From contig JBKPCR010000099.1 in assembly GCA_046727435.1 (NCBI GenBank), forward strand, positions 1 to 64,000: a stretch of DNA of 64,000 nucleotides, given 5' to 3'. Within the stretch, counting starts at the first letter, position 1. Every line of letters begins with the position of its first letter. The stretch is from CAVPRW01 sp046727435 [NCBI: bacterium]. Lineage in GTDB: Bacteria > Tectomicrobia > Entotheonellia > J063. The position numbers and the translations under genes were made by a program. The notes beneath the pieces are model-generated. The model searched no databases. It saw only the letters and a list, made by a program, of their open reading frames with translations, and was not told where the DNA came from. This document shows, in pieces, positions 16,538-59,853 of this stretch.

Positions 16538-16556
16538 ATGCAAGTCCTTCTTTCAT
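16524..16556 (-). promoter_or_regulatory. Duplicated ribosome-binding site and 10-codon leader ORF over the oxidase start
   Basis: An 18-base block (16533-16550) holding the SD and start codon is repeated 19 bases upstream (16552-16569) with one substitution. The upstream copy opens a mini-ORF at 16556 that ends in TAA at 16524-16526, inside the oxidase coding start but in another frame. Translation of the mini-ORF would compete with, or couple to, the oxidase start. Confidence 0.5.
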
Positions 16557-28571: not shown

Positions 28572-29912
28572 TTATGTGGTCTTCGCACAGGAGGGCGCTA
28601 TGTTGGGTAGGGGAAAAGAGGAGGAAGGAAGATCGATGGTTGGAGGGCTCGGGGCTTTGATGGCCCCAAAGGCGGCTCGATGGGCCACTTGATCGACAAT
28701 GAATGAAAGGAAAATATAGTGCCAGAACATTTCATTGTATTGAAAAGGGAGAAAACTACCACCAACAAGGTAGACGCAAAGCCCCGATCGCAGAGCTATA
28801 GCTGTGGATTCAAGGTGTATAAGCTCGGGATGACCTGAAACCAGCTTAGATACGCGGGAACAGGAGCGGAATGCGCAGAGGAGAATCAAAGCATACAAGG
28901 CGAGGCCTAGAAATCCTAACTCCGCGGTAATACCTAGCGGAGAGCTATGCACAGAGCGCATGCGTCCGTACCTACCTTGGGAAAAGTCGTAGGTGTCGTA
29001 GGCCTGATTGTAAGCGTTGAAACCGATGCCGAAGAAGGGATGAGCTTGGGCCATAACAAGGGCTACTTGCCAGAAGTGAAGACGGCCCAGAGCAGATTCG
29101 TCCTCTTCTTCTTCATACGTTTGGATGGTATTCATTCGATTCCAGAACGCCTCGGGTAACGTTGCGACGATGATCATCATGACTATTAATAGAGCCATCA
29201 AGTTGCGGAATTTGTAGCGAGATTGTAACCAATAAATCACTGCCAGAGCGATGCAAGCGACAAAGCCTCCACGGGAATAGGTCGATAGGGCCCGATAGAA
29301 CACCCCGATGAGCAGGGCCCAATAAGCTGGACGTACCCACTTCCACGCTGTTGATTGAGCGAGCAAGCCGACGACGGGCACCAGCATCAGCATTCCGACA
29401 GCAACGCCATTATTGTCGCCGAGGAATGGTAGCGGATTGACGTTTGGCGATCCTGGTGACGTAAGCAGAGCAAACCATCCTTGTCTGGCGCCCTCAAGAC
29501 CTAGCGACAAGGCAATCACGAGCAGCGTCAGGCGCAGTTTCGAAAAATCGTCGATAAGAATAAGCATTAGATAACCTATAATATTTATCTTTAAGAATTC
29601 TTTCCAAAAAGGCCAACTATATTCATAATAGGATGATACCCATATAGAAAAAAATGTCTGTACTAGAAAAATGAAAATAAGTACAGTACGAGTGTTTAGA
29701 ACAAATTTTTTTCTGGATAGTAATGTTATAATTATTGTGTAGAATCCAATGAAATAGGAAAGGTTGATACGTTGTAGAGAATTGTCCCAGAGCCAAATTT
29801 CTGGCCTGAAATATGCGTTCCACAAATAGAAGAGGAGTGCATAAAATGGCCCTTGCAAGGCATAGTACGTGCCAATGATTATCATACTAAAAGCAATAAT
29901 GGGACGGAGCAT
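28572..29912 (-). CDS. O-antigen-ligase-like / O-glycosylation ligase, exosortase-A-associated type
   Basis: The 446-residue protein has about ten or eleven membrane helices and one large periplasmic loop between about 265 and 330. The loop carries RMNTIQTYEEEEDESALGRL and HPFFGIGFNAYNQAYDTY, which match the Wzy_C region of TIGR03097 ligases tied to exosortase-A polysaccharide loci; the following HSSPLGITAELGFLG is the usual end of that domain. Such enzymes join or polymerise lipid-linked glycans at the periplasmic face. The first half is A+T-rich, like the two glycosyltransferases at 18-20 kb. It is the promoter-distal end of a minus-strand run of glycan genes, with a gap of about 180 bases before FemAB. 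Confidence 0.88.
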   Translation of the reverse strand: MLRPIIAFSMIIIGTYYALQGPFYALLFYLWNAYFRPEIWLWDNSLQRINLSYFIGFYTIIITLLSRKKFVLNTRTVLIFIFLVQTFFSIWVSSYYEYSWPFWKEFLKINIIGYLMLILIDDFSKLRLTLLVIALSLGLEGARQGWFALLTSPGSPNVNPLPFLGDNNGVAVGMLMLVPVVGLLAQSTAWKWVRPAYWALLIGVFYRALSTYSRGGFVACIALAVIYWLQSRYKFRNLMALLIVMMIIVATLPEAFWNRMNTIQTYEEEEDESALGRLHFWQVALVMAQAHPFFGIGFNAYNQAYDTYDFSQGRYGRMRSVHSSPLGITAELGFLGLALYALILLCAFRSCSRVSKLVSGHPELIHLESTAIALRSGLCVYLVGGSFLPFQYNEMFWHYIFLSFIVDQVAHRAAFGAIKAPSPPTIDLPSSSFPLPNIAPSCAKTT

Positions 29913-30095
29913 AGTTAAATCCCAATAAAGTTGAAAAATATCTGTGTTAAATTGTGAAAGTCTTTTATTAGAAAGAATGGGTATGAATTGCGAGAGATAT
30001 GTAGGTAGTACTGGGAACGCTGACTAGCTCATGTGAAGTGGGGATTTGATGAAAGCAGCATACTATCTCGCACCTGCGGCTTAAGACCATGAGGT

Positions 30096-31163
30096 CTACT
30101 GAGTAAGATATTTTCGAACATGAGGACCAAGCCATCGTGTCACATGCAGAGGGAGATATCTCCAGAGTTGCGCCAGTAGAACGGCTTTCGGGTCCGCGCC
30201 CGATAGCCTTAGGCATTGGGGGGCCACGGTCGGGATCGTGTACCAAAATAACGGCTCCTCAACGGCGCCCCACTGACGCTTGAACCGGTAGGTTCCCGAG
30301 TTGCGGCTTGAGCGCCCGAAATCGAACCGCAGGAAACCCTCAAGACAAGCGCTGCGGAGCACCTCCCAATAGAGGAGCATGTTAGGACATAGAGGAAGGT
30401 ATTGGCGTAGCGAAGAGGCCCACGGGACAATCAGGGAGTTTTTGAACGCCAAAGCGATCAACCCGCCGATGGGTTGTGCATCTTTGCGTACGAGCACGAC
30501 GCGGGCACAGTCACCGAAGGCTTCGAGGATAGCCTGAAAAAATCCCCGGGCGTGTACAGGCGATCCAAGATCGCGCATGTTCTGGGCGAAGATCTCATAA
30601 AAGCCATCTAACCTATTGGATTGTCCGAACTCCACCGACAGGCCCGAGCGTTCCGCCTTGCGCACTTGATTGCGCACCTTGGCGTCGAGCTGATTCCAGA
30701 GGCGCCCTGGATCCTTGGGAAGCGACCGAAAGAGGTTCACCTTATCGCCGGTGGCTGCGACCGGCAGGTCCAGCGGCACAGTGCAGCGCAGCTCAACCAG
30801 CCTCGCTCCATGGTGTGCAGCTTCTTCTATCAAGCGTGTCAGGAGCATGCGGCTGAGAGCCGGTGAGGAACTACAAGGGCCTCCCGTGTCAAGGAATGGC
30901 ATCGACGTTACCACTGTCCCGAATAGACGGCTGCGGACGAGGAACGCCGGCAGGATAGCCATCTGCCCTGTACTATTCTCAGCCTGCAGGTATAGAGGAG
31001 TATGGCCATAGGCCCTATGGATGGCTGCGTACCACCGCGGCGACTGTGCCACGTTGGCATCGTCCATCTGATGAATGAGAGTAGACCACTCACCCTCCAC
31101 ATCAGGTTGGCAGCAGAGAACCTGAACCGTAGAATTGGGTGACTGCAAAGTTTTGAAGTTCAT
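30096..31163 (-). CDS. FemAB-like GNAT-fold protein (PEP-CTERM/exosortase-associated)
   Basis: The ATG at 31161-31163 has GGAG nine bases upstream; a GTG at 31184 directly abuts the previous stop and is the alternative. The 355-residue product has two GNAT-like halves, with SPRWYAAIHRAYGHTPLYL near 40 and KVRNQVRKAERSGLSVEFG near 160. The second half holds VRKDAQPIGGLIALAFKN and the C-terminal GRSSRNSGTYRFKRQWG, characteristic of TIGR03019 proteins. FemAB proteins transfer aminoacyl groups from tRNA in peptidoglycan; members in EPS loci are thought to add amino acids or acyl groups to the glycan. It sits directly behind a glycosyltransferase, so the two are probably cotranslated. Confidence 0.88.
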   Translation of the reverse strand: MNFKTLQSPNSTVQVLCCQPDVEGEWSTLIHQMDDANVAQSPRWYAAIHRAYGHTPLYLQAENSTGQMAILPAFLVRSRLFGTVVTSMPFLDTGGPCSSSPALSRMLLTRLIEEAAHHGARLVELRCTVPLDLPVAATGDKVNLFRSLPKDPGRLWNQLDAKVRNQVRKAERSGLSVEFGQSNRLDGFYEIFAQNMRDLGSPVHARGFFQAILEAFGDCARVVLVRKDAQPIGGLIALAFKNSLIVPWASSLRQYLPLCPNMLLYWEVLRSACLEGFLRFDFGRSSRNSGTYRFKRQWGAVEEPLFWYTIPTVAPQCLRLSGADPKAVLLAQLWRYLPLHVTRWLGPHVRKYLTQ

Positions 31164-31184
31164 AATAAAGGTCTCCACGGGCAC

Positions 31185-32453
31185 CTAGGCTCGGCCGACT
31201 GAGCGTCTGTAGAACGCGTCTAACGTGTCACCGATGACCTGCCAAGAGTAACGACGCTCAACCAATTGCCTCCCCTCCATTGCGAGGCGTTCGCGCAACT
31301 CCTCGCGATCCAATAATGCGATAAGCTGCTGCGCGAAATCCCCCGCCGCATCGGCGACGAGGACGTGTTGACCGTGGACGCACTCGATGCCTTGAACGCC
31401 GACTGTGGTTGAGACAATGGGAACCCGCATGGCCATCGCCTCGAGTACTCTGAGCCGCGTGCCACCACCCGCCAACAGGGGCACCACAAAGGCAGCCGCA
31501 TCGCGCACATGCTCTCTGATGTCTGCGACCGATGCGGCCACGCTGACACCACGAGAGACCTGACGCAGGAGCGCCCGCTGGGGGTTACGCCCGACGATGT
31601 GTAAAGTAGCGTCTGGCCGCGCCTCCATCACCGACGGCCACACTTGGTTGAGGAACCAGAGTAACCCTTCGACATTGGGCAGCCAGTCGAGTGATCCAAC
31701 CGACACTACCCGATAAGGGCGAGGCCGACGGGGGATGTCGAAGAAGGCGGGGTCAACTCCGTTCGGTATGACCTCCTGGTCAGTGTGCGGTGCTACTGCC
31801 TCCACCATATGGGCGTCCCGCGCAGAGACGACACCGACGGCATCCACAGCCTGTAATGTCTCTTGTTCGAAACGGGCGAGCTTTCGCAGTTGCGAGCCAA
31901 GATACCAGCGGAGAAGTGCTTTCGAGGTGTTATCGCGAGTTGAGCGCAGAAGACTCGTTTCATAATTATGCTCATCCAAATATACAGCCGGTCTTGGACA
32001 GCAACTCTGCAGATACACTGCAGCATCCAGGTGATCCAAGTGCACAAGATCAAAAGACTCACGACTCATAAGGCTGCTGATCAGACGAGCCAAGCCCTCG
32101 CGATAATGGCTATATGCAGCCACATACGGTCTGGCACTGGCGACGAAAGCCACTGGGTCAAGGATTTTACTTACAACCGATGGGGGCTTTAACGGAACAG
32201 AATAGAGCTGAGAAACCAACGCGCGGATTTGCTCCTCCCCCTCTGTGTCCTTTGGAGCTTTTTGCGTCACGAGTGTTACCTCATGGCGCAGCCCAACTTG
32301 TCGGAGGATGTGATAGGTACGAATTCTCCCACCGGTGTTGAGAGGCCATGGAAGAAACTCTGTAATGAACAGTACACGGAGTTTTCTCTTCCAAGCACTG
32401 GATTCGAGCCTATAATATCTTCTCTTGTGGTGACGTTGACTTCTGGGGATCAT
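31185..32453 (-). CDS. Family 4 glycosyltransferase, TIGR03087-related
   Basis: The product has 422 residues. It begins with a basic leader and then KLRVLFITEFLPWPLNTGGRIR, the acceptor loop of this group. Middle elements LDEHNYETSLLRS and IPNGVDPAFFDIP, and the donor site VPLLAGGGTRLRVLEAMAMR followed by VPIVSTTVG, show a complete GT-B enzyme. It is the second member of the Stp1-like group in the window and should add one residue of the repeat unit. The stop codon is directly followed by the possible GTG of the FemAB gene. The ATG used is the only one before the conserved start, but the conserved part begins only at about residue 26, so a later non-ATG start is possible. Confidence 0.87.
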   Translation of the reverse strand: MIPRSQRHHKRRYYRLESSAWKRKLRVLFITEFLPWPLNTGGRIRTYHILRQVGLRHEVTLVTQKAPKDTEGEEQIRALVSQLYSVPLKPPSVVSKILDPVAFVASARPYVAAYSHYREGLARLISSLMSRESFDLVHLDHLDAAVYLQSCCPRPAVYLDEHNYETSLLRSTRDNTSKALLRWYLGSQLRKLARFEQETLQAVDAVGVVSARDAHMVEAVAPHTDQEVIPNGVDPAFFDIPRRPRPYRVVSVGSLDWLPNVEGLLWFLNQVWPSVMEARPDATLHIVGRNPQRALLRQVSRGVSVAASVADIREHVRDAAAFVVPLLAGGGTRLRVLEAMAMRVPIVSTTVGVQGIECVHGQHVLVADAAGDFAQQLIALLDREELRERLAMEGRQLVERRYSWQVIGDTLDAFYRRSVGRA

Positions 32454-32540: not shown

Positions 32541-33617
32541 TCAGATAAGTTCTTGCTCTACGCGGCGCTGGCCGGCCTTGTGGTGCTGATTGATGAGTTT
32601 CCAGAGCGCGTCCCGCAGCTTTGTGGGCTGGAGCCAGCGCATGACCACCACGGAGACAATTGCGAGGCCTGGATAGAGAATAAGCATGAGGAGGCCGATA
32701 CGCGGCCAATAGCTGGGAATCACATAGCGCAGCGGCGGCTGCAGCGCGAATAGCAGGGGCATATGCGCAATAAAGATGAATAACGAATGACGGGCGAAGA
32801 ACGCAACTATAGCATAAGCAGGGAGACGCCTGGCAACCTCGAAGACGAGCCAGGTATAGGCAACGTAGAGGAAGGTGACACATGCAGAACGCGTCAGCAC
32901 CATGGCCGAGCCAGCCATACCAATAAAATTCCGGAAGGGGAATGCCTCATCGAGAACAACCTGGCGCATGCCAAGAGTCCAGGCGATGAGCAAAGTCGCT
33001 AGGCTTAACAGGTACATGGGCAGGGCCGCGTCGTTTGCCTTCTGCTCTCGGTCGCGCATGTACATACCTAACAGGAACACTGTGGCCCAATTCGGAAGCA
33101 TCATATACGTGCGGAAGAGGGCTCCGCTGTCCAGCATTACGGCTCGAAGAATGATTTCTCCCAGTGCGACAATGCCAACCATCCAGAGCCGAACGCGCAC
33201 TTTGTGAAGCACCAGCGCCCAGAGCAGGACCACATGTATATAAGTGCCGATATACCAGGTCGTCGGATTGGCCGGGAAGTAGTCCAGCAGAACATTGATC
33301 CCAAGGAAGAAGGGGAGATAGTTGCTTTCGTTTAAGTCACGCTGCGTCACGAAGAGGATTGCACTCATCACCATGGCAAAGCCGAGACCCACGAGAATGA
33401 CCGGAAATAACCTATTGTAGACGACTTGAAAGCGATGCCGCGATTCGCGTGCCAATCCCCATCCGATGACGAAGATGAAGAACGCCACACCGAGCTGCTT
33501 GGCATAGATTGGTGGGGTCAGGTACATAATTGAACCGGTGGCGACGTGTCCCAAGACAATTAGGAACATGCCCAGGCTCTTCATCCAATCGATGAAATGG
33601 ATATGTGGACGATCCAT
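32541..33617 (-). CDS. Membrane acyltransferase, acyltransferase-3 family
   Basis: The start is the ATG at 33615-33617; the open frame extends upstream into the previous gene but has no family match there. The 358-residue product has about ten membrane helices and the opening HFIDWMKSLGMFLIVLGHVA, with the conserved His after the first helix, as in O-acetylases such as OafA. Further features are FFIFVIGWGLARES and an ARHSLFIFIAHMPLLF motif near 300. The family moves acyl groups from a cytoplasmic donor to extracytoplasmic sugars. It lies downstream of an ACP, a ligase and another acyltransferase, which suggests it delivers a carrier-bound acyl group rather than plain acetyl-CoA. Confidence 0.87.
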   Translation of the reverse strand: MDRPHIHFIDWMKSLGMFLIVLGHVATGSIMYLTPPIYAKQLGVAFFIFVIGWGLARESRHRFQVVYNRLFPVILVGLGFAMVMSAILFVTQRDLNESNYLPFFLGINVLLDYFPANPTTWYIGTYIHVVLLWALVLHKVRVRLWMVGIVALGEIILRAVMLDSGALFRTYMMLPNWATVFLLGMYMRDREQKANDAALPMYLLSLATLLIAWTLGMRQVVLDEAFPFRNFIGMAGSAMVLTRSACVTFLYVAYTWLVFEVARRLPAYAIVAFFARHSLFIFIAHMPLLFALQPPLRYVIPSYWPRIGLLMLILYPGLAIVSVVVMRWLQPTKLRDALWKLINQHHKAGQRRVEQELI

Positions 33618-33642
33618 GCTAGTCTGCTCCTGAGCCACCAGT

Positions 33643-34275
33643 TCAGCCCTGACTCTGCGTCTGCAGCTCGTCTCTGAGTTGTCGGACGAATCGACTTGGG
33701 TTGCCCGCCAGCAGAATCCCAGCCCGTGCATCCTGCTCAACAACCGCCCCGGCCGCCACCATGGTCCCTGCCCCAACATTGGCCATGACGATGGCGCCCT
33801 CTCCGATCCATGCGTAGTCCCCGATTTTGATCTGGTGCAGTCGCGTCTTGTCGCAGGGGCCCCAGCGACCCTGCTCGTCCAGTTCGTGTAAGGCAGTGCC
33901 ACTGAGGAGACTTGCTCGGCTGCCGATCAGACACCCTTCACCGAGATGAGTCGAGCCCACCAAGGCGTATGCCCCGATGTAAGCGTTCTGCTCTACAACA
34001 GCACAACGATGCGTGAAGAGCGCGCCAAAGCCAATGTAGAAATTGGACGCACAGCGGTCCAAGGTCAAGCGGTAGTATGCACGGCGCAGAAACACTCCCG
34101 GTACCCCAGGGAAGACGGAGAATATGTGGGCCCAGAACAGAAACATGGATTCCGAGCCGTCAGTGATGCGCTCCTCGAGCCAACAACTGAAGGCGCACGG
34201 TGACACCAGCGCCAGACATACGCCATTCATGAGCGTTTTGATAGTTATCCGAATCTTGGGCAATCGTTTCTTCAT
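33643..34275 (-). CDS. Hexapeptide-repeat (LbH) acyltransferase
   Basis: The ATG at 34273-34275 has GGAG seven bases upstream. The 210-residue product has a hydrophobic N-terminal part (about 15-60) that may lie along the membrane. Left-handed beta-helix turns follow from about 80 (ALFTHRCAVVEQNAYIG, LVGSTHLGEGCLIGSRASL). A loop with KTRLHQIKIGDYAWIGEGA precedes the final coils, and the closing VVEQDARAGILLAGNPSRFV is typical of NeuD/WbbJ-type O- or N-acyltransferases. A catalytic His is expected, but which of those present serves cannot be fixed. It is 25 bases upstream of the membrane acyltransferase gene, so the two may act in sequence. Confidence 0.83.
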   Translation of the reverse strand: MKKRLPKIRITIKTLMNGVCLALVSPCAFSCWLEERITDGSESMFLFWAHIFSVFPGVPGVFLRRAYYRLTLDRCASNFYIGFGALFTHRCAVVEQNAYIGAYALVGSTHLGEGCLIGSRASLLSGTALHELDEQGRWGPCDKTRLHQIKIGDYAWIGEGAIVMANVGAGTMVAAGAVVEQDARAGILLAGNPSRFVRQLRDELQTQSQG

Positions 34276-34331
34276 AACAATTCTCCGTGGATGGTGAAAG
34301 CCCTGCTACTCTCAGACCTTTCCTCGCGGCG

Positions 34332-35684
34332 TTACAAGGCCTGACTGGCTGCCCGACGCATTCGCTTGAATCGTTCAGTATGCAGAGGTTCGTTGGTGAA
34401 GCGCACCCGCGTCGGAATTTGGTATGGCGCGAGCCGGTCCTTACAGAAACGGCGCATCCGTATCTTGAATTGCGCCGCCGACTCCTCGCGTTGTAATTTG
34501 ATGGTCGCCGCCACCATATGACCAGTGAGCGGGTTGGGCTCGGCATACACCACTGCGTCTTGCACATTGTCCAATGTCAGTAAAACGCTCTCGACTTCCG
34601 CAGGGAAAACTTTGCTGCCACCGACGTTAATGATCTCACTTGCCCGACCAAGGATGCGCAGCCATTCGCCATCGACTTCGACCACGTCGCCGGTGTCGAA
34701 ATAGCCTTGCTCATCCAACGAGCTTGCGGCATTGAGGTAGCCCAGCATCGCCGACTCAGCTTTGATCCACAGCCGATTGTCGATGACTTTCATCTGGTAC
34801 CCTTCCCCGCCGAGTCGCACCCACCGCGACGTCGAGTCGCGTGATTGCGATCGGAGAATGCCCAACTCGGACAGGCCGTAGGTCTGCTGCAGCGTCACCG
34901 CCGGAAAGACTTGAGCTACCCAGTCTAACGTGCTCTGTGGCATAGGCTCAGTGCCATAGGTAATCAGCCGCAATGATGATAAGTCGTATGCCTTGTCCGC
35001 ACCGGAAAGGAGCAAGAAATTAAGGAACGTTGGTGACGTCGGCAACAGTTCCACACGGTGCTGCTGGATGGCCTGACACACTCCGCTCGGACTTCGATCC
35101 GCCGCCACGACCGCCATACCGCCATTCGATAAGGTATAAAAAAGCGTGTTGATGCCACCGATATGATCGAGTCCGAGAAAGAGCAGTGTGCGCCATCGGC
35201 GTCGTGGTTGTTGAAACTTCTTCAGTAACAGATGTAGATCATGCACCACTGCCTTGTTTTTCCCCGTTGAGCCGGATGAAAACAGCACCAGCCCTGGGGC
35301 TTCGCGCTGTTGGAGTAAATCATATAACGGCTGTTGTGCATGTCGCCCAGTTGACTCGATTGTCGGGGTGGTACCAGCCAGGCGGATGTAATATTCGACC
35401 TGAGCAATGTCACAGAACTCATCATGATGCGACTGGGCTTCTCGCGACAGCGGCACGATGATGGTGCGACGTTGCATCAAAGCGAGCAGCAGGGAAAGCG
35501 TCTGGGCACTGTAGTGGCCGTCTATGCCCACCACAGTGCCGGGGCTGAGGAGGGCCTGGCCAAGATGATCCTGCCAGGCTCGAACGTGGTCCCACAGGCT
35601 TTGGTAGGTCATGACAGTGATGTCGGAGGCGAGGGCCTCGCAGTCTGCATGCGCCCGCATCGTCTCCAGTAGAAACGTCATCAT
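34332..35684 (-). CDS. AMP-forming acyl ligase (adenylate-forming enzyme)
   Basis: The 450-residue product carries the phosphate-binding loop LFSSGSTGKNKAVVHD (134-149), the substrate-pocket region with TYGTEPM and the motif QQTYGLSELGILRS, the ATP-ribose Asp in YFDTGDVVEVDG, and the hinge GRASEIINVGGSKVFPAEVE. The C-terminal lysine appears within TERFKRMRR instead of the usual TGKIDR. It is somewhat short compared with 500-550-residue family members. It should activate an organic acid as an adenylate and load it on the nearby acyl carrier protein or on CoA. Its ATG overlaps the stop of the SDR gene by four bases (ATGA), which couples their translation. Confidence 0.88.
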   Translation of the reverse strand: MMTFLLETMRAHADCEALASDITVMTYQSLWDHVRAWQDHLGQALLSPGTVVGIDGHYSAQTLSLLLALMQRRTIIVPLSREAQSHHDEFCDIAQVEYYIRLAGTTPTIESTGRHAQQPLYDLLQQREAPGLVLFSSGSTGKNKAVVHDLHLLLKKFQQPRRRWRTLLFLGLDHIGGINTLFYTLSNGGMAVVAADRSPSGVCQAIQQHRVELLPTSPTFLNFLLLSGADKAYDLSSLRLITYGTEPMPQSTLDWVAQVFPAVTLQQTYGLSELGILRSQSRDSTSRWVRLGGEGYQMKVIDNRLWIKAESAMLGYLNAASSLDEQGYFDTGDVVEVDGEWLRILGRASEIINVGGSKVFPAEVESVLLTLDNVQDAVVYAEPNPLTGHMVAATIKLQREESAAQFKIRMRRFCKDRLAPYQIPTRVRFTNEPLHTERFKRMRRAASQAL

Positions 35685-36394
35685 CCTAGTCCTCCCAGAT
35701 AGATGACCTGTCCGGTGATCATCTGGCTTTCAGGATGGAGAAAGAAATCGATGATATGCGCCACATCGCTGGGTTGAGCCATACGCCTGATGGCTTGCTG
35801 TTCCACGAGGTGGCGAATCTTCTCTGCCCCCACACCTTTGAGCAGATCTGTATCGATCGGGGTTGGGCCGACGGCATTACAGGTGATGCCGAAGGCACCC
35901 AACTCCCGGGCTGCTATGCGGGTTAGGGTTTCAATGGCGCTTTTTGAGGCAGCGTAGATTGCCTCGCCCGCCAACCGCAATGGCACCGCGACACTAGACA
36001 TGTTGACAATGCGCGGTGCAGGGGATTTACGCAGCAGGCGAATCGCCGCTTGGCTCAGCAGGAACGTGCCCAGAAAGTTTGTTTCCATGATACGGCGTGC
36101 CACCTCCACTGGCGTCAGCGCGATCGGATTCATATTGGCGACGCCGGCATTGTTGATCAGCGCATCTAGGCCGCCCACGTCCCGTTGCACGTCATGTAAC
36201 AGTGTCTGCACGGCGTGCGCATCCGTCACATCGACACGATAATGGCGATACCCCTCATGGCTAATGAGGCGTTCCGACGCTTCAGTGCGCGCGCAACCGA
36301 TGACGAAGTCACCCTGGTCAAGGTAGTGACCCGCCAGATAGCATCCCAGTCCTCGGCTGGCACCCGTGATGAGGATGTGACGTCTCCTGCTCAT
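35681..36394 (-). CDS. Short-chain dehydrogenase/reductase (FabG-like)
   Basis: The 237-residue product is a classical SDR: cofactor loop TGASRGLG (10-17), NNAG (81-84), the catalytic Ser in NMSSVAV (133-134) and YAASK with Tyr147 and Lys151. The product-side PTPIDTDLL and the C-terminal SQMITGQVIYLGG complete it. The acidic or basic residue selecting NAD or NADP is not obvious (GCART suggests NADP). FabG-like enzymes reduce 3-oxoacyl-ACP to 3-hydroxyacyl-ACP. Lying three bases behind an acyl carrier protein gene and overlapping an acyl ligase, it probably makes or adjusts a hydroxyacyl group for sugar decoration. Reduction of a sugar intermediate is the alternative. Confidence 0.9.
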   Translation of the reverse strand: MSRRRHILITGASRGLGCYLAGHYLDQGDFVIGCARTEASERLISHEGYRHYRVDVTDAHAVQTLLHDVQRDVGGLDALINNAGVANMNPIALTPVEVARRIMETNFLGTFLLSQAAIRLLRKSPAPRIVNMSSVAVPLRLAGEAIYAASKSAIETLTRIAARELGAFGITCNAVGPTPIDTDLLKGVGAEKIRHLVEQQAIRRMAQPSDVAHIIDFFLHPESQMITGQVIYLGGLG

Positions 36395-36397
36395 CGC

Positions 36398-36688
36398 TCA
36401 GCTGGCCAGACGATCTTCGATGAAGGCCACCAGGGACGGCACATCTTTGAAAGGACTCCGTGCACGCGACATCGCCCGCTCGTTTGTTAGGATAATGTTG
36501 TAGCCCGCTTCCCCAAGGGCCTCCTCGATGTCGATAATGAGGGCGACGAGGCCCATGGAGTCAAGTTGACCATCATTGCCAAACAACGGGGCATCGGGCG
36601 AGACGGTTAACTGTTGGTTGTCCTCGCGCGCCTGATTGGCCATACGTAGCGCGTCAAGAATAATTGTTTGAATCTGACTACAATCCAC
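36398..36688 (-). CDS. Acyl carrier protein
   Basis: The start is a GTG at 36686-36688 with a strong AAGGAG upstream; the nearby ATG at 36693 is in another frame. The 96-residue product is acidic and helical, with Ser44 in QLDSMGLVAL as the 4'-phosphopantetheine attachment site; the usual motif is DSL. The SDR, ligase and two acyltransferase genes follow at once, which marks it as a dedicated carrier and not the housekeeping ACP. It probably holds an acyl group made or trimmed by the SDR and passes it to the transferases. The gap of 124 bases to asnB upstream may contain an internal promoter. Confidence 0.92.
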   Translation of the reverse strand: MDCSQIQTIILDALRMANQAREDNQQLTVSPDAPLFGNDGQLDSMGLVALIIDIEEALGEAGYNIILTNERAMSRARSPFKDVPSLVAFIEDRLAS

Positions 36689-36812
36689 TGCATGCTCTCC
36701 TTAATCGCGATATCTCAAAGGGCAACCATGGCAGCGAGAATGCGTTTGGGAGGAGGTTTCTCATAAGGAGTTGCCATGGTCCACGACGTGTGTCGGTTAG
36801 GGGCCTCCCTCC

Positions 36813-38753
36813 TCAGCCTACGGAGAGGGGAGAACTGCTTATTGCAGGCCTCTTTTGTGTGAGGCCTTCGCCATCGATGAAGGTTCGATGCCAGAGTTCC
36901 AGTATCAACAAATCCCAGAGGTACTTCGCGTGATCTGCTTCCCCACGACAATGGGCCTCGAGCAACTTCGCGATTGCCTCGGACTGAAAATACCCCCGCT
37001 GCAGAGCACGCGGGGTGAGGAGGACGTCGTGCGCCATCTCCCGTAATTCCTTGCGGAACCAGCGCGCCAGGGGGACACAGAAACCCATTTTAGGTCGCTT
37101 CAAGACAGCCTCTGGAAGCTCATCACGGAACGCAGCCTTCAGCACACGCTTCTGCTGCCTACCTGTGAGCTTCAAGCATGCTGGTAAACTTGCGACAAAT
37201 TCCATCAGCTCATGGTCGAGGAAGGGTGATCGAGCCTCCAGAGAGTGAGCCATCGTCGCCCGATCGATTTTGACCAACAGATCCTCGGGGAGAAACAGGT
37301 TGACATCTGTGTCGAGCATTGTATCAACCCATTCCTCGGTGTCACTCCGAGCAAAAGCCTCTCCAAATAATCCTTCTGGATTGCTCTCTATGACCTGTGC
37401 GCCAAATGATGAGGTATATAACCGCTGTCGCGCCTCTGGGGAGAAGTGTTCCATCCAGTAGGCATAGCGGCATGCTGGTGACAAGGCGAGTAACTCTGTC
37501 AAATGTGTGATCTTGCGTAACAGTCGGTGCTGCCTCCTGACCGACGACAGGCCTCGCCCCCACGAAGCAATCCATTGCCGCAGCCACAATGGGATGACCT
37601 CTCCTCGTCGCACTAATAGATCTTTGACGTACCACTCATACCCTGCAAAGTTCTCATCCCCCCCATCGCCATTGAGAACCACTGTGACATGCTGGCTGGT
37701 GAGCTCGGCAATCGCGTAGCTCGGCACCGCCGAGGTATCCCCAAATGGCTCGTCGTAATGCCAGACAAGACGTGGGAGAATATCGGTCACTGGAGCCTTT
37801 ACTACCAGCTCTGTATGAATAGTCCCAAAGCGTTCTGCTACCAGTCGGGCATATGGGCGCTCATCAAATGACGCATCCTCAAATCCCACCGAAAACGTCC
37901 GCACCGGATGTCCCATTTCTTGTGCCATGGCGGCCACGACAGCGCTTGAGTCAACACCACCACTGAGGAATGCCCCAAGCGGGACATCGCTGACCAGGCG
38001 GAGACGGACGGCCTCGGCAAAACGCCAGCGTAATTCGGCTACAGCCTCTGGCAGGGTGATCTGGCGTTTGGGGGTGTATTGGAGTTTCCAGTAACGCCCT
38101 ATCTCTAAGTGACCATCGCGGACTTCAAGCCAGTGAGCTGGAGGAAGTTTTCGTATGCCCCGAAAAGCCGTCAGCGGCGCTGGGATATATTGCAAGGCGA
38201 GGAAATGATCCAGGGCCACCGGATCGGGTTCAGCCGGAATAGTGTGATCAGCGAGCAGCGCCTTGATCTCGGACCCAAACAGAAAGCAATCGCGGCCGAG
38301 ATAATAAAATAGGGGTTTCTTTCCTACCCGATCACGCGCCAAGAATAAAAGACGCTGGCGCGCATCCCAGATGGCGAAGGCGAACATGCCGCGTAACCGC
38401 TCGACACACGTGCGACCATACTCCTCATAGGCATGGACGATGACTTCAGTATCACTCTGGGTGCGGAAAATGTGCCCTTTGGCTTGGAGTGCTTGACGCA
38501 GCTCCTGGAAGTTGTAGATCTCGCCATTGAACGTAATCCAGATGGTGCCGTCTTCATTGCACATTGGCTGATCGGCCACAGCACGTAGGTCGATAATCGC
38601 CAGACGGCGATGGGCCAGCCCCACATGTTGAGCTGCCCAGACCCCGTCACCGTCGGGGCCACGATGGCTGAGGGCCGTGGCCATCTGTTGCAGTTCCTTG
38701 GGGTCGACGGTGCGTGTCTGGTCGAAATAGAGCTTTCCACAAATACCGCACAT
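36813..38753 (-). CDS. asnB: Asparagine synthase-type glutamine amidotransferase
   Basis: The product has 646 residues. After Met, Cys2 (MCGICG) is the glutaminase nucleophile, supported by HRGPDGDG, FNGEIYN and GSEIKALL in the N-terminal domain (to about 205). The synthetase domain has the ATP pyrophosphate loop SGGVDSS (264-270) and SVGFEDASFDE. In polysaccharide loci such enzymes amidate uronic acids or make asparagine as donor; the XrtA-associated amidotransferase 1 group has the same size and layout, but I cannot separate the two. The neighbouring glycosyltransferase ends 33 bases upstream, so they are likely one operon. Amidation of the 2,3-diamino-uronic acid predicted from the 57-60 kb genes is an attractive target. 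Confidence 0.9.
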   Translation of the reverse strand: MCGICGKLYFDQTRTVDPKELQQMATALSHRGPDGDGVWAAQHVGLAHRRLAIIDLRAVADQPMCNEDGTIWITFNGEIYNFQELRQALQAKGHIFRTQSDTEVIVHAYEEYGRTCVERLRGMFAFAIWDARQRLLFLARDRVGKKPLFYYLGRDCFLFGSEIKALLADHTIPAEPDPVALDHFLALQYIPAPLTAFRGIRKLPPAHWLEVRDGHLEIGRYWKLQYTPKRQITLPEAVAELRWRFAEAVRLRLVSDVPLGAFLSGGVDSSAVVAAMAQEMGHPVRTFSVGFEDASFDERPYARLVAERFGTIHTELVVKAPVTDILPRLVWHYDEPFGDTSAVPSYAIAELTSQHVTVVLNGDGGDENFAGYEWYVKDLLVRRGEVIPLWLRQWIASWGRGLSSVRRQHRLLRKITHLTELLALSPACRYAYWMEHFSPEARQRLYTSSFGAQVIESNPEGLFGEAFARSDTEEWVDTMLDTDVNLFLPEDLLVKIDRATMAHSLEARSPFLDHELMEFVASLPACLKLTGRQQKRVLKAAFRDELPEAVLKRPKMGFCVPLARWFRKELREMAHDVLLTPRALQRGYFQSEAIAKLLEAHCRGEADHAKYLWDLLILELWHRTFIDGEGLTQKRPAISSSPLSVG

Positions 38754-45442: not shown

Positions 45443-48400
45443 TTACATAGCTCCCGGGTTGTAAGTAAGGGTGAGGTTGTGGAGGACTGGGGTTTGTCCA
45501 GGAATCGTGGTGATCAGCTGGGCCTGATACTGAATGTAGCGCGTGCTACCGCCGATCGTCGCCCCCGAGCTTGACAGAGGGGTGAACGGGGTCCACGTCC
45601 CATCCGGGATCGGCGTGGTGCCCTGGCGCACGCTGATGCGGAGACTCGTGCCACTGGGCACGGTACTCGTCCAGCTGGCTGTGCCCCAGCTCACCAGTGC
45701 CCCCGCATTGAACACCTGGGAGGTGAAGATGCCCGATGTGGCATAGGGGGTCATGCGCAACCAGTCCACCACCACCGTGCCGCCCCCCGCCGTGGCGTCG
45801 CTGACCAAGGGCCGCATGGGGGTCGTACTGGCACGCGCGTGGGTGGCCACCACGGTGCCGTCGACCGAATAGACCACGTTCGTCGCATTCCAGTCGATGC
45901 GGAAGCGATGCGGGGCACCCAGCCGGCCGCTGCCCAGCGGCGTACTAGTTGTGGTCGACCCGAACCGGGTCTGGGCGAGGAGGTTGCCGCCCTGGGTGGT
46001 GAACCTCGCCCAAGGCGCGATGCTAAAGTCAGTGCCGAAGCCAACGTTCTGGTTCGCCGCGCCGCTGAAGGTGGCCACGAATTCGAGCGAGCGGCCGGCT
46101 CCGAACGTGGCCGTGGTGCCGGCACGCGCGCCATCGATGGTGAGCATGCCGTTGGCGACCGTGGCGGTGCCGGAGAAGGCGGTCCAGCCGCTGGGTAGGG
46201 CGGTGCCATCGAACTCGGTCCGGATGGTCGGGGCTAGGAGCACTTCGCCGTCAGCGGTCTGGCCGATGTAGGTGCCAGCCTCGGGCGTGCCGGTACGGAA
46301 GTCGACGACTGTGGTATCCAGGAAGGTTCCGGGCGGTAAGGATGGGGTGAACACGACATCGACCCAGTAGTTGCTGGCATTGAAGGTTTGGGTGGGGAAG
46401 GCGCTGCTGGCACTATAGATATAGACGCCGTTGCCGCCCGCCTCGCCATCGGCCAGGGCCCGTAGCGGGCCGTTGGTGAAGGCGGTGCCAAAGTAGGGCT
46501 CGTTGAGGGCGTAGTGCCCCGTGTCGGTGTGGTAGGAGGCGACGTAGATGATGCCGGCTTTGATGGGGACGGGGCTGGCGAAGCTGGCCTGCTGCCAGCC
46601 CGAGGCCGTCTCGCCGCTGAAAGTGACGCTGGTCAGCGGTATGCCGGCGGCCGTCCACAGGGTGCCCACATGTACCCCGGTGTTGGTCGTGCCCTTGTAG
46701 AAGCGCAGGCCGGTGATGTAGCCATCGCTCTGGGCTTGGAACTTCACGCCGACCTCCACCCGCTTCGCATCGTTATCGGCCGCCACCGCCGGCACCGTCG
46801 CATCGCTCCACAAACTACACGGACACGCCGCCGACGCCGAGATGGTGAAGGTTTGGGTATTGGAGGTGCCACCACCTGGGGCTGGGTTGAAGACCGTCAC
46901 CGCAGCAGTCCCGGTTGCGGCGATGTCTGCAGCCGCAATCGCGGCCGTCAGCTGTGTTGCGGAGACAAATGTCGTCGGCCGATTTGCCTCATTCCAGCGG
47001 ACCACCGAGTTGGTGACAAAATTCGTCCCGTTCACCGTCAGTGTAAACGCTGCTCCGCCCGCTATCGCCGAATTTGGCGCGAGGCCGCTCGTTGTCGGCA
47101 CGGGGTTATTGGATGGCGGCGCCTGGGTGGTGAACACGACATCGACCCAGTAGTTGCTTGAGTTAAAGGTCTGGCTGGGGAAGGCGCTCGCGCCATAGAC
47201 AAAGAGGCCGTTGCCACCCTCCTCGCCATTGGCCAGTGCCCGCAGCGGCGGATTACTGACGCCTGAGCTCGCAAAGTATGCCCCATCGAACGCGTAATTC
47301 CCCGCGGTGGTGTGATACGACGCAACATAGGTAGTGTTGGTGGTGATCGCCACCGGCGCAGATAGGGTGACCTGCTGCCAGCCGGAGGCAGTCTCATTGG
47401 TGAAGGTAGCGCTTGCCAGCAGGGTCCCGCTGCTGGTCCAAAGATTGCCCACATGCGTACCCGTATTACTCGCCCCCTTGTAGAAGCGCAGCCCCGTGAT
47501 GAAGCCATTCACGGTTGACTGGAACTTCACTCCGAGCTCGACGGCATTCGGATCGTTCGCCGACGCCACTGTCGGGGTCGTGGCGTTACTCCACAGGCTG
47601 CACGGACATGCAAGCGGTGTGGTGGTGAATGAGGAGGTGACGTTGGCCAAAGCATTGCCAGCCTGATCCTTGGCGCCGGTGATGGTCATCGTATAGGTCG
47701 TCCCGAACGCCAGCGTGTCAATTGGATTTACGGTAGCAGTATGCGTCGCAGCGTTATAGGTGACGGTGACGGGCACGAGGGTGCCATTGGCATCCCGGAG
47801 CTCGATGGTACTTGTATTGATCGTCGCCGGATCCATCGCCTCGCTAAAGGTGATGGTGAAGCTGGCTGCGGGATCGACATTGGTCGCGCCGTTCGGCACG
47901 GAGGTCGAGCCGACCGTTGGCGGCGTCGTATCGGGTGCATAGGTGGCTTGATAGGTGCCCACGGTGGCTGCAAAGAAGGCATAGTCGATACCTTTAACGA
48001 CCTGTGTTGAGTAGGACACCGAGGCGCCATTCCGTGTGATACCAGTCAGTGCACCAGCGGCAACCGTTGTCGGCAACATGGCCTGGATGCCATTCGTGCC
48101 CGAGCCCGGAGTTATGGTGAAGCTCAGGGTATTCCCATTCCAGGCCAGTGACCCAAACGACGAGCTATCGCGGCCGTCCAGCCAGGTCAACATTTGTCGG
48201 GCGGAGACCACGGGCACGCCGCGAGCCTGCGCCGAGGCGATGATTGCATCCGATCCGCTTGAGGACACGGAGTCCGTGTGCATGTTGGCGGTGAAGGCAC
48301 CGTAATAGCCCTCAGTGCCGATTGCTTTGTCCAAAAGCGCATTGATTGTAAAGGGGTATGTCTGGCCGGACTCGTCGGTCATCTGCGTCGTCGCTTGATA

Positions 48401-51400
48401 GATATCGATCATGGTGCCGTCCAGAAGCGCAAAGCGCATCGGCATACCAGAGCCGGTAAAGAACCCTGGACGGTCAGCGAGCCAACTGGGCGGCCAGTAG
48501 TAGTAGTTCGTGTCAAGACGAATGCCGTGGGCCAGCTCGACCTGAGGCTGGGTCATGTAGTCACTCCACACGATGCAGTGCGTCCGGTTGGTCGTGGGGG
48601 CTGGGACGCTCGGGAAGGTCGAAGCGAACGTGGCGAGCTGGTCGCTATAGAATGATTCAAGCGACGAAGGTGTCGTCCAGTTATCGCATCCAGTGGTGAC
48701 GTGTAGGCCCACCTCGAAGCCCTGGGCGACGTAGGAGGCGGCCTGTGCATCCGTCAGTGGAGTGGTTGGATAGATGTACGAGGTGCTGCGGATACACTCC
48801 CAGTCGGCGACCAAGCAACCTGCTGGGCTATTCGCTTTGTATTGGTCAAAGCGGCCAGCGGTACCACCATTCGCATGATCGTCGCCGGTCATGATGACGA
48901 CGGCCTTTTTGCCGTGAGGGAAGTACCAAAAGCGCGGCAGCGGCTTTTTGTCGCGGTTCATGGACAGGATGAGATTTGCCAGCAGGCGCTGCTGCTCATC
49001 CGCCTGTGGGATCGCAACCTTGTTCAGGTCGACCCAGTCTGGCTGAGGGTCACCGGAGGCGTTTCCGAAGAACATGTCGTCGGAACGCCTCGGTGGGAAG
49101 CCATCGCGCTCTTGTCCAGCCCAGTCGGTATTGCCCTGCCGCATGTCGACGACCGAGAGCGCCAGGTCGTATGTGAAGGCGGCTGCTTGACCTCCGTTCG
49201 TGCCAACGCTGCGTAGCGTGACAGCTGGGTTCGCGGTCGCCGTGCTGGCATTCGAGTAGAGCGTGGCGAGACGTGAGGCGCCGCTGAGTGTGTAGCGATC
49301 GGCGATGCCACGGTATTGAATGGTCTGGCTTACGATCCCCGCGCCGGGCCCCGTCGAGGTGTCCACCAGGAGGTAGGCATTCGCCAGTATCGACGACGTA
49401 TCGGTCAGCCCGAGCAGGCTGGCGAGTTGCTTGTCCGGGCGCATGGCGATCAATTTTCCGCCAGCGTTGACCCAATCACTGAACATTGTAACCTGGGCGG
49501 GTGTGAGCGATAGCGGGCCGAGAATGACCACGTCATAAGCAGCCAGCGTTGGTGTCGAGACCGCAGAGATGTCGCTGACATCGAAGGCGTTGAAGCCTTC
49601 GGTACGTAGAATCTCGGCGTAATAGCGACTGAAGGGGTTTGATGCGCCAGCAACGACTAAGATCGGTCCACCCGGCCCCTGGTCGGGCGCGGACGCTGCA
49701 GAGGGGGCCGCTGCGGCCAACGACGAGGGGCCGTCGGCGCTTAGTGTGTTGGCTGTTAGTGTGTTGCCTGACGGATCCTGCACGCCATCGGCGCCGCCTT
49801 TGAGCGTAGTCGCTAAGGTTCCCATCTGCGCCAGGGACCCGCTCGGCGCAAACGTGTCGGCGACAGCTGTGGAGCTGAAGCTGCTGGCGCCCGTCATCGT
49901 CCCGCCCGCCGCCTCGTTAATGGTGAGGTCGTGGAGGACTGGGGTTTGTCCAGGAACGGTGCTGGCGAGCCTGGCTTGATACTGAATGTATTGCGAGCTG
50001 CCCACAATAGTTGCCCCCGAGCCCGACAGGGGAATCCAGGAGCCCGTCAGGGGTAGCGTGTTGCCTAGCCGCACACTGATGCTGAGACTCGTCCCACTCG
50101 GCAGCTGGCTCGTCCAGCTGGCCGTCCCCCAACTCACCTGTGCCCCCGCATCGAACACGCGGGAGGTGAAGATGCCCGATGTGGCATAGGGGCTCAGCCG
50201 CAGCCAGTCCACTACGACACTGCCGCCCCCCACTGTGCGGTCGCTGGCCAGGGGGCTCATGTTTTGGCTAATGGCACGGTTGTGGGTGGCCACCACGGTG
50301 CCGTCGACCGAATAGACCACGTTTGAAGCATTCCAATCGATGCGGAAGCGATGCGGGGCCCCAAGCCGGCCGCTCCCTAGCGTCGTATTATTTGTGGTCG
50401 ATCCGAGTCGGGTTTGGGCGTAGAGGTTGCCGCCGCCGCGCGTGGTAAACATCGCCCACGGCGCGGTGCTGAAGTCGGGCGTGGTGGTGTTGGTGAAGCC
50501 GACGTTCTGGTTGGCCGCCCCGCTGAAGGTGGCCACGAATTCGAGCGAGCGGCCCGGCCCGTATGGGGCCACCTGACCGGCACGTGCCCCATCCAGGGTG
50601 AGCACGCCATTGGCGACAGTAGCGGTGCCGCCGGTGCTCCAGGCAGGGGCAGTCCAGCCGGCGGGCAGGGTAGTGCCCGTGAATTCGGTCCCGACGGTCG
50701 GGAGCAGGAGCACTTCGCCATCGGCGGTCTGGCCGATGTATGTGTTGGCCCCAGGGGTGCCATTGGGGGTGCCAGCGCCGAAGTCGGCTACAGTGGTGTC
50801 GGTAAAATGCGGGGGCACCTGCGTGGTGAACACGACATCGACCCAGTAGTTGCTGGCGTTAAAAGTTTGGGTGGGGAAGGCGCTGGCGCCATAGACATAG
50901 ACGCCGTTGCCGCCCGGTGTGCTGCTGGCCAGGGCTTGCAGCGGGCCATTGGTGAAGGCGGTGGCGAAGTAGCCCTCGTTGACGGCGTAATGCCCCGTAT
51001 TGGTGTGGTAGGAGGCGACATAGGTGGTGTTGGCGGCGATCGCCACCGGCGAGGCGAAGCTGACTTGCTGCCAGCCGGAGGCGGTCTCGCCTGTGAAGGT
51101 GACGCTGGTCAGCAACGTGCCAGTCGCGGTCCACAGGGTGCCCACATGCGTCCCGGTGTTAGTCGTGCTCTTGTAGAAGCGCAAGCCGGTGATGAAACCA
51201 GCGGCCTGGGCCTGGAACTTCACCCCCACCTCGATGGCCTGATTGTCCGGGTCGGCCGCCACCGCCGGCACCGTCGCGTTACTCCACAAACTGCATGGAC
51301 AGATCGGCGAGGATGAAGCCGCTGTGGTGAACGACCAGGTTACGTCGGCACTCAGTTGGTTACCCGCGGCATCCTTGACGCCATTGGTTCCACTCTTGAT

Positions 51401-59774: not shown

Positions 59775-59853
59775 ACGTAAGACACCTCTCGCGAGTGGGC
59801 CAAAGTGACGGCCTGATCTCGCGGCAAAATGATTGGCAAGAAAAGCAATCTCT

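What the first reader, a model, noticed from the sequence alone, without database searches (positions are those of the whole stretch)
32541..36688. A dedicated carrier-protein acyl-tailoring set inside a polysaccharide locus
Seen: five adjacent minus-strand genes encode an acyl carrier protein (GTG start, strong SD), an SDR three bases later, an AMP-forming ligase overlapping it by four bases, a hexapeptide acyltransferase and an acyltransferase-3 membrane protein. Known: D-alanylation (Dlt) works by ligase, carrier and membrane acyltransferase; FabG-like SDRs act on carrier-bound 3-oxoacyl groups. Inference: an organic acid is activated, loaded on this ACP, reduced or checked by the SDR, then put on a sugar, first in the cytoplasm by the hexapeptide enzyme and/or across the membrane by the acyltransferase-3 protein. 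I do not know this exact five-gene combination as a described system, which makes it my best candidate for a new glycan modification route.
Basis: partly seen in the sequence, partly recalled or inferred. Interest (0 to 1): 0.72.

Follow-up and report, generated by a model that had tools for sequence, protein, structure and literature searches.

The report
Carrier-protein cassette that acylates surface sugars
Five adjacent bacterial genes form a portable set that appears to build a small acid on a carrier protein and attach it to a surface sugar; a related core set starts the antibiotics mupirocin and thiomarinol, which suggests what the acid may be.

Summary
Five intact minus-strand genes (32541-36688) encode an acyl carrier protein, an SDR, an AMP-forming ligase, a hexapeptide acyltransferase (HEX) and an AT3 membrane protein, inside an XrtA/PEP-CTERM-type exopolysaccharide locus. 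The set recurs: in 10 of 196 sampled genomes of one unnamed proteobacterial family the five genes lie together (8 in the window's order). The window's AT3 protein matched exactly those 10 of the 196.

The trio ACP-SDR-ligase belongs to a wider family. The ligase groups with that of the thiomarinol plasmid (97/98 against generic ligases); the mupirocin counterpart MupQ/MupS/MacpD is published to make a hydroxyacyl-ACP. In five other loci the trio sits among pseudaminic acid genes, beside a PseH-type N-acyltransferase.

I favour a hydroxyacyl-ACP cassette that decorates glycans. A short omega-hydroxyacyl (3-hydroxypropionyl, 4-hydroxybutyryl) is the leading candidate but not shown: the ACP is not of the Mup/Tml type, the SDR's kinship is unresolved, no chemistry was tested. 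4-Hydroxybutyryl on bacterial sugars, including pseudaminic acid, is reported. Such a trio, called fatty-acid genes, is reported in Aeromonas flagellar islands. My searches found no paper on the five-gene set.

The parts
36398..36688 (-). acyl carrier protein (96 aa, GTG start); Ser44 in LDSMGLV is the expected phosphopantetheine site
   Evidence: LDS invariant in the 15 ACPs; AxSxxxSPF signature shared by the glycan-type ACPs aligned; no Pfam hit
35681..36394 (-). short-chain dehydrogenase/reductase with Ser-Tyr-Lys pattern (SSVA...YAASK) and TGASRGLG cofactor motif
   Evidence: PF13561, PF00106; clade of glycan-type cassette SDRs 99/99
34332..35684 (-). AMP-forming ligase of the family that includes the thiomarinol-plasmid (TmlQ-type) ligase
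   Evidence: PF00501, PF13193; 38% identical to the pTML1 ligase; clade 97/98 with cassette ligases
33643..34275 (-). left-handed beta-helix (hexapeptide) acyltransferase with invariant His130 and a helical N-terminal part
   Evidence: PF00132; alignment A1; model of low confidence, mean pLDDT 62.5
32541..33617 (-). acyltransferase-3 membrane protein, invariant Lys13-x10-His24; start at 33617
   Evidence: PF01757, 56 bits; alignment A2; in 196 genomes matches only the ten five-gene ones
36697..36702 (-). ribosome-binding site AAGGAG, eight bases before the ACP GTG
   Evidence: sequence
36813..38753 (-). upstream neighbour: asparagine-synthase-like XrtA/PEP-CTERM amidotransferase (context, not part of the cassette)
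   Evidence: TIGR03108, 659.5 bits, below its 816.9 cut-off
28572..32453 (-). downstream neighbours: GT4 glycosyltransferase, XrtA FemAB protein, O-antigen-ligase-like protein (context)
   Evidence: TIGR03087, TIGR03019, TIGR03097

Best explanation
The five genes are one acyl-tailoring cassette. The ligase adenylates a small carboxylic acid and loads it on the cassette's own ACP. The SDR reduces the bound acyl group, giving a hydroxyacyl-ACP. The hexapeptide enzyme transfers that group to a sugar of the exopolysaccharide precursor in the cytoplasm, and the AT3 protein completes the modification at the membrane (moving the group to, or adding another acyl group on, the exported glycan). Shown: gene content, intact catalytic motifs, conserved linkage, kinship of the ligase with the thiomarinol one, and the same trio beside PseH in pseudaminic acid loci. 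Inferred: loading of this ACP, reduction, acceptor, and the division of labour between the two acyltransferases. Leading substrate guess: an omega-hydroxyacyl group (3-hydroxypropionyl from malonyl-CoA or 4-hydroxybutyryl from succinyl-CoA), by analogy with MupQ/MupS and TmlQ/TmlS; I give that chemistry alone about 0.35-0.4.
For: Five genes together in 10 of 196 sampled genomes of the family of G380, eight in the window's order, with ACP 48%, SDR 52%, LIG 54%, HEX 43% and AT3 37% identity in G380. The window's AT3 protein alone (E<=1e-8) matched exactly those 10 of 196 genomes, each at E<=1e-64. The ten lie in about six different flanks, one of them an exosortase locus with a sugar transferase and a polysaccharide deacetylase (L054). 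HEX and AT3 keep invariant catalytic-type residues. Ligase clade with the thiomarinol ligase 97/98. The mupirocin trio MupQ, MupS, MacpD makes 3-hydroxypropionyl-ACP from malonyl-CoA; thiomarinol is primed with 4-hydroxybutyryl (PMC10098928, abstract and passages). The trio lies between PseG/PseI-type and PseH-type genes in L056-L060 (named by NCBIfam in L056, by protein cluster in the other four). 4-Hydroxybutyryl on Pse and on 3-amino-3,6-dideoxygalactose is reported (PMC9912281, PMC3210612, passages).
Against: The window ACP is not similar to thiomarinol-type ACPs (12-14% to three of them in alignment; no BLAST hit at E 1). The glycan-locus SDRs and the thiomarinol-type SDRs are separate clades; their union has only 87/93 support and FabG as sister is not rejected. 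Gene order differs from pTML1 (ACP-SDR-LIG against LIG-SDR-ACP). Nineteen of the 30 mapped ligase loci have no relative of the window's HEX or AT3 at E 1e-3, and L106 has HEX without AT3, so the trio does not need them. In L047-L051 the operon lies between pspA and dus genes and none of eight flanking proteins scanned in L048 is a glycan enzyme by Pfam. The 376.14 Da Pse derivative of an Aeromonas strain whose island group holds such a trio fits a dihydroxybutyryl group (376.148) and not 4-hydroxybutyryl (360.153).
Confidence: 0.62

Rival explanations
1. Preformed-acid route, as in Vibrio cholerae O1: the ligase loads an already made hydroxy or oxo acid on the ACP, and the SDR is a FabG-type 3-oxoacyl reductase, giving for instance 3-hydroxybutyryl-ACP for sugar acylation. 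No thioester reduction is involved.
For: The best solved-structure and NCBIfam matches of the SDR are FabG enzymes, the NCBIfam ones below their cut-offs; FabG as sister is not rejected (p-AU 0.354). [quoted passage not shown] Several marine polysaccharides carry 3-hydroxybutyryl sugars (PMC3210612, passages). The 376 Da Aeromonas sugar fits a dihydroxybutyryl group.
Against: The ligase groups with the thiomarinol ligase, not with generic ligases; the union of glycan-locus SDRs with thiomarinol-type SDRs is in the best tree (87/93). No ketosynthase or acid-making gene is among the five.
Confidence: 0.3
2. Only the ACP-SDR-ligase trio works together; HEX and AT3 are ordinary O-acetyltransferases using acetyl-CoA that happen to travel with it.
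For: The HEX profile's best solved matches are maltose and galactoside O-acetyltransferases. HEX-like proteins occur without the cassette: 45 of 196 genomes match the HEX profile at E<=1e-30, 35 of them not among the ten five-gene genomes. Nineteen of 30 mapped ligase loci lack relatives of both.
Against: The ten cassette HEX proteins stand apart (321 bits or more against 189 or less, profile built on them), and in 196 genomes the window's AT3 matched only the five-gene genomes.
Confidence: 0.2
3. The cassette makes a small secreted metabolite or modifies a lipid rather than a glycan.
For: Operon between pspA and dus genes in five related genomes (L047-L051); ligase relatives serve polyketides.
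Against: Window, L052 and L054 lie among polysaccharide genes; trio relatives sit with pseudaminic, legionaminic-type and other amino-sugar genes.
Confidence: 0.12

Closest known systems
Mupirocin MupQ/MupS/MacpD and thiomarinol TmlQ/TmlS/TacpD priming cassettes (PMC10098928, abstract and passages; Walker et al. 2020, ACS Chem Biol 15:494-503, cited there, its abstract and the Tml gene names recalled)
   Same: adenylating ligase, SDR and dedicated ACP encoded together; the pTML1 ligase and the window's are in one clade
   Different: reverse gene order and a different ACP type on pTML1, separate SDR clade, and a polyketide synthase gene next on pTML1 and in Bradyrhizobium (in Burkholderia a 2108-aa protein annotated as SDR family, probably a PKS, not checked), not HEX and AT3
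[quoted passage not shown]
   Same: same three gene types beside pse genes, as in L056-L060
   Different: described as fatty-acid genes, no specific function assigned in the passages seen; no HEX/AT3 mentioned there; sequences not compared here
Vibrio cholerae O1 tetronate pathway RfbK-RfbO (RfbL/RfbK in PMC12208996, passages; other members recalled)
   Same: carrier protein and ligase in a surface-polysaccharide cluster that acylates an amino sugar (acceptor recalled)
   Different: RfbM iron alcohol dehydrogenase and FkbH-like RfbN (recalled), no SDR or AT3 (recalled); sequences not compared
D-alanylation (DltA-DltD)
   Same: ligase plus carrier protein plus membrane acyltransferase
   Different: DltC model 19.3 bits against 68 cut-off; DltB is an MBOAT and there is no SDR or hexapeptide enzyme (recalled)
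XrtA-associated acyl-CoA ligase TIGR03098
   Same: AMP-forming ligase linked to XrtA systems by its model name
   Different: window ligase scores 83.8 bits against 592.35 cut-off

Membership tests
Mup/Tml-type hydroxyacyl priming cassette | ligase in the MupQ/TmlQ family | tested here: met
   29 cassette ligases, the pTML1 one included, form one side of a branch against 11 generic ligases, 97/98; MupQ itself was not available
Mup/Tml-type hydroxyacyl priming cassette | SDR of the MupS/TmlS clade | tested here: inconclusive
   six thiomarinol-type SDRs are their own clade 100/100; union with glycan-locus SDRs 87/93; FabG as sister p-AU 0.354
Mup/Tml-type hydroxyacyl priming cassette | MacpD/TacpD-type ACP | tested here: not met
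   no BLAST hit at E<=1; 12-14% identity to the pTML1 ACP and two relatives; MacpD not available
Mup/Tml-type hydroxyacyl priming cassette | adjacent ketosynthase or PKS that takes the starter | tested here: not met
   HEX and AT3 follow instead; none among the ten proteins scanned
Mup/Tml-type hydroxyacyl priming cassette | converts malonyl-CoA or succinyl-CoA to hydroxyacyl-ACP | not testable with these tools
   needs enzyme assay
Dlt D-alanylation | DltC-type carrier protein | tested here: not met
   19.3 bits against cut-off 68
Dlt D-alanylation | MBOAT acyltransferase DltB (recalled) | tested here: not met
   membrane protein is PF01757 AT3; no MBOAT among the ten proteins scanned
XrtA acyl-CoA ligase TIGR03098 | score above the model cut-off | tested here: not met
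   83.8 bits against 592.35
AT3 acyltransferase (PF01757) | Pfam score and conserved R/K-x10-H motif (motif recalled) | tested here: met
   56 bits against 31; Lys13 and His24 invariant in 11 of 11
Left-handed beta-helix acyltransferase (PF00132) | hexapeptide repeats and catalytic His | tested here: met
   44.2 bits against 27; His130 invariant in 11 of 11; its catalytic role is inferred from maltose acetyltransferases, recalled
Vibrio cholerae O1 tetronate pathway | homology of ACP and ligase to RfbK and RfbL | not tested
   sequences not fetched; only paper passages seen

The most novel reading that the evidence does not exclude
A portable cassette, related in its core to antibiotic starter synthesis, makes an omega-hydroxyacyl-ACP (3-hydroxypropionyl or 4-hydroxybutyryl) and passes it to sugar acyltransferases. 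It serves exopolysaccharides in the five-gene form and pseudaminic acid in the PseH form, and is the missing source of the 4-hydroxybutyryl groups known on bacterial sugars. Its free terminal hydroxyl could then carry a further sugar, so the acyl group may be part of the chain itself.
Probability: 0.35. Interest if true: 0.76.

Novelty: new variant of a known kind. Interest (0 to 1): 0.62.

Why it matters
It links two subjects that the passages I saw treat apart: polyketide starter-unit enzymology and surface-glycan decoration. If right, it gives a genetic handle on where 4-hydroxybutyryl and related hydroxyacyl substituents on bacterial sugars come from (I know of none, but did not search for that alone). 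It would let part of a glycan's chemistry be predicted from a gene trio in XrtA exopolysaccharide, pseudaminic and legionaminic-type loci, and it turns an unexplained trio in flagellin glycosylation islands into a testable pathway.

Tried and rejected
Dlt-like system: rejected on the DltC score and the absence of MBOAT among ten scanned proteins.

XrtA ligase TIGR03098: rejected on score.

Ligase-HEX fusion in L106: a 675-aa open frame covered both, but its translation shows no ligase sequence ahead of HEX and no Pfam ligase hit; the ligase lies in another frame. Not a fusion.

Genome-contig relatives L001-L005 of the ligase: 23-30% identity, generic ligases; used only as outgroups.

Window genome and taxon: no genome held; the taxon stays unknown.

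HEX structure: model of mean pLDDT 62.5, too weak, so no fold search was run. The AT3 profile found no solved structure at E<=1.

AT3 in viral contigs: 26 stretches matched a pattern, none confirmed. HEX in 190 genomes of the class of G002 at E<=1e-15: none; only 20 of the 190 handles are printed, so I cannot tell whether G1066, whose locus L106 has a 46% HEX, was among them, and the result says little.

Phage records: 34 matched a pseudaminic-type cassette ligase; the 20 shown are at 24-27% identity, so generic ligases.

Aeromonas mass check: 376.14 Da does not fit 4-hydroxybutyryl-Pse; kept as evidence against that chemistry for that strain. The Aeromonas trio was not compared by sequence.

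The AT3 and HEX profile searches used profiles built from the cassette rows, so those hits are by construction; the fairer test is with the window protein alone. The hypergeometric value 2.4e-12 ignores relatedness: L047-L051 share 13 to 15 flanking gene families and count as about one site. In the SDR test nine long-branch rows were dropped beforehand.

Papers that gave nothing for the question: PMC6367315 (passages), PMC3069032 and PMC7371886 (no occurrence of the terms).
Full report
Observation. The ACP has a GTG start eight bases after AAGGAG, and Ser44 lies in LDSMGLV. The SDR begins three bases after the ACP stop, and the ligase overlaps the SDR by four bases. The one addition is the AT3 start, most likely ATG 33617. 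Pfam confirms SDR, ligase, hexapeptide and AT3 above cut-off; the ACP has no Pfam hit at E 0.01 and only a sub-threshold DltC hit, but carries the LDS motif.

Surroundings. The cassette lies between an XrtA/PEP-CTERM-type amidotransferase and glycosyltransferase, FemAB and O-antigen-ligase-like genes. Elsewhere in the window are a polysaccharide export protein, more glycosyltransferases, a hexapeptide-DegT fusion, a UDP-GlcNAc 3-dehydrogenase-like gene and an ABC exporter ATPase. An exopolysaccharide locus is therefore well supported. No genome is held for the window, so the organism is unknown.

Conservation. A search with the window ligase in 398 genomes drawn from one phylum (that of G004, Rugamonas) gave 5 matches at E<=1e-40; one, G380, holds all five genes in the same order at 48, 52, 54, 43 and 37% identity. 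In G380's family, 18 of 196 sampled genomes matched. Ten of the 18 carry all five genes: eight in the window's order (L024, L047-L052, L054) and two (L053, L055) with AT3 and HEX 3.6-4.8 kb from the ligase, beyond a large gene. Searches at E<=1e-60 of an order (4 of 345 genomes) and of a class (5 of 240) added seven genomes. The samples overlap, and only the first few candidates per genome were scored, so the counts are lower bounds. In all, 29 genomes with 30 loci were mapped.

The 30 loci sort as follows (my grouping): ten five-gene loci; one with ACP-SDR-LIG-HEX and no AT3 relative (L106); five with the trio in a pseudaminic acid locus (L056-L060); three with SDR and ligase near amino-sugar or nonulosonate genes (L103, L104, with an ACP; L107, no ACP found); L028 with a GNAT gene beside the ligase and a weak ACP match; L026 and L027 with SDR and ligase only, neighbours not identified; L105 near a DegT aminotransferase and an XrtA-type amidotransferase relative; L108 and L109 with a CmlS-like halogenase; three with thiomarinol-type SDRs (L061-L063); and two unassigned (L025, L064). 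Nineteen of the 30 have no relative of the window's HEX or AT3 at E 1e-3.

Linkage test. The window's AT3 protein alone, at the lax limit E<=1e-8, matched 10 of 196 genomes of the family, exactly the ten five-gene genomes, each at E<=1e-64. Profile searches agree, though their hits on the ten are by construction: AT3 10 of 196; HEX 45 of 196, but the ten cassette copies score 321 bits or more and every other listed match 189 or less. The ten loci represent about six sites, since L047-L051 share flanks. One site, L054, is an exosortase locus with a sugar transferase and a polysaccharide deacetylase, paralleling the window. L052 has a pyruvyl transferase, a glycosyltransferase and another AT3 protein fused to SGNH. 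L047-L051 lie between pspA and dus genes; of eight flanking proteins scanned in L048 none is a glycan enzyme by Pfam and two have no match. That setting is unexplained.

Residues. Across 11 HEX proteins His130 and many fold residues are invariant. Across 11 AT3 proteins Lys13 and His24, the K-x10-H pattern, and the segment NPTTW.IGTY.H are invariant. The SDR keeps its Ser-Tyr-Lys pattern and glycine motif, and the ligase its core motifs. These are active-looking enzymes.

Kinship. Of the 20 plasmid records listed for the ligase, the best lie beside an SDR and an ACP-sized gene, ahead of a polyketide synthase in Bradyrhizobium (47.7%) and on the thiomarinol plasmid pTML1 (38.1%), and ahead of a 2108-aa protein annotated as SDR family in Burkholderia (45.7%); Rhizobium plasmids carry ACP, SDR and ligase with a NeuD-like hexapeptide protein and a halogenase. 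In a tree of 40 ligases the 29 cassette ligases, that of pTML1 included, stand together against 11 generic ones (97/98). The thiomarinol-type ligases fall among the window's and the pseudaminic-type ones, in a group of 24 with weak support (82/85). The SDRs of glycan loci form one clade (99/99) apart from thiomarinol-type SDRs (100/100) and FabG. With nine long-branch rows dropped the two cassette groups join at 87/93, and FabG as sister of the glycan group is not rejected. The glycan-type ACPs aligned share an AxSxxxSPF signature that three thiomarinol-type ACPs lack.

Known chemistry. PMC10098928 (abstract and passages) states that MupQ, MupS and MacpD make a 3-hydroxypropionate starter from malonyl-CoA, and that thiomarinol uses 4-hydroxybutyryl. 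PMC4685789 (passage) reports incorporation of labelled succinate and 4-hydroxybutyrate into thiomarinol. I recall from the abstract of Walker et al. 2020 (cited in PMC10098928) that succinyl-CoA is the thiomarinol substrate; I did not see that paper.

Glycan branch. In L056 the trio lies after PseB, PseC, PseF, PseI and PseG and before PseH, all six above NCBIfam cut-offs. L057-L060 carry members of the same six protein clusters, with the PseH cluster next to the ligase. A FliD-like gene is seen in three of the five and a Maf-type glycosyltransferase in three. In L103 the trio lies near LegC-type, NeuB-type and WecE-type genes. Two IMG/VR contigs, L110 and L111, also hold SDR, ligase and a weakly matching ACP near PseI- or PseF-like genes. 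The Aeromonas paper PMC7874193 (passages) lists an ACP, a 3-oxoacyl-ACP reductase and an AMP-dependent synthetase in its group II flagellin islands (98 strains), as fatty-acid genes. So such a trio had been seen; no specific role is assigned in the passages I read.

Does the product exist? 4-Hydroxybutyric acid amide-linked to Pse in a polysaccharide backbone is stated in PMC9912281 (passages), and 3,6-dideoxy-3-(4-hydroxybutyramido)-D-galactose in Pseudoalteromonas in PMC3210612 (passage). Against a simple match, Aeromonas piscicola AH-3, placed in the island group that holds the trio, has a 376.14 Da Pse derivative. That fits one dihydroxybutyryl in place of acetyl (376.148) and not 4-hydroxybutyryl (360.153). 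Other compositions may fit too, and I did not test whether its trio is of this family.

Conclusion. The five genes are a conserved acyl-tailoring unit (about 0.75 in my judgement). They most likely make and transfer a hydroxyacyl group to a glycan (0.62). The omega-hydroxyacyl identity is an analogy (0.35-0.4). By sequence the set is not a member of the Mup/Tml cassette: the ACP test failed, the SDR test was inconclusive and there is no ketosynthase. It may still work like one.

Novelty. Searches touching the trio, the set or the acyl group in glycan contexts gave the Aeromonas paper and, in the listings and passages I saw, no description of the five-gene set. The library holds open-licence papers only. 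I class it as a new variant of a known kind.

Noticed in passing
L008:8037-13690, L011:11977-17633, L108:8297-17669, L109:8640-18001: Rhizobium plasmids and two genomes of the class of G002 carry the ligase, SDR and ACP with a NeuD-like hexapeptide protein and a CmlS-like FADH2 halogenase (49% identity between the two sets): possibly a halogenated acyl group on a sugar.
   Followed up: partly
L024:4725-8336, L053:11218-13935, L055:2540-5074: A large protein of one homologous family lies beside the cassette; the copies in L024 and L055 show a PcRGLX-like RIFT-barrel domain (polysaccharide-lyase-like) near the N-terminus; the L053 copy had no Pfam match at 1e-5.
   Followed up: partly
L110:4252-7027, L111:4176-7119: IMG/VR contigs carry SDR, ligase and a weakly matching ACP near PseI- or PseF-like genes, so putative viral or prophage DNA may move the trio.
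   Followed up: partly
window 57133-58773 and 58770-60107: A hexapeptide domain fused to a DegT aminotransferase, and beside it a UDP-GlcNAc 3-dehydrogenase-like gene: an amino-sugar pathway about 20 kb from the cassette.
   Followed up: no
window 13154-16543: A 1129-aa protein with laminin-G, kelch and galactose-oxidase-like domains.
   Followed up: no
window 45443-54088: A 2881-aa open frame with one matched 'choice-of-anchor Z' repeat domain (NF058597).
   Followed up: no
L047-L051: The five-gene operon sits between pspA and dus genes, with no glycan enzyme among eight flanking proteins scanned in L048, so its acceptor in these genomes is unclear.
   Followed up: partly
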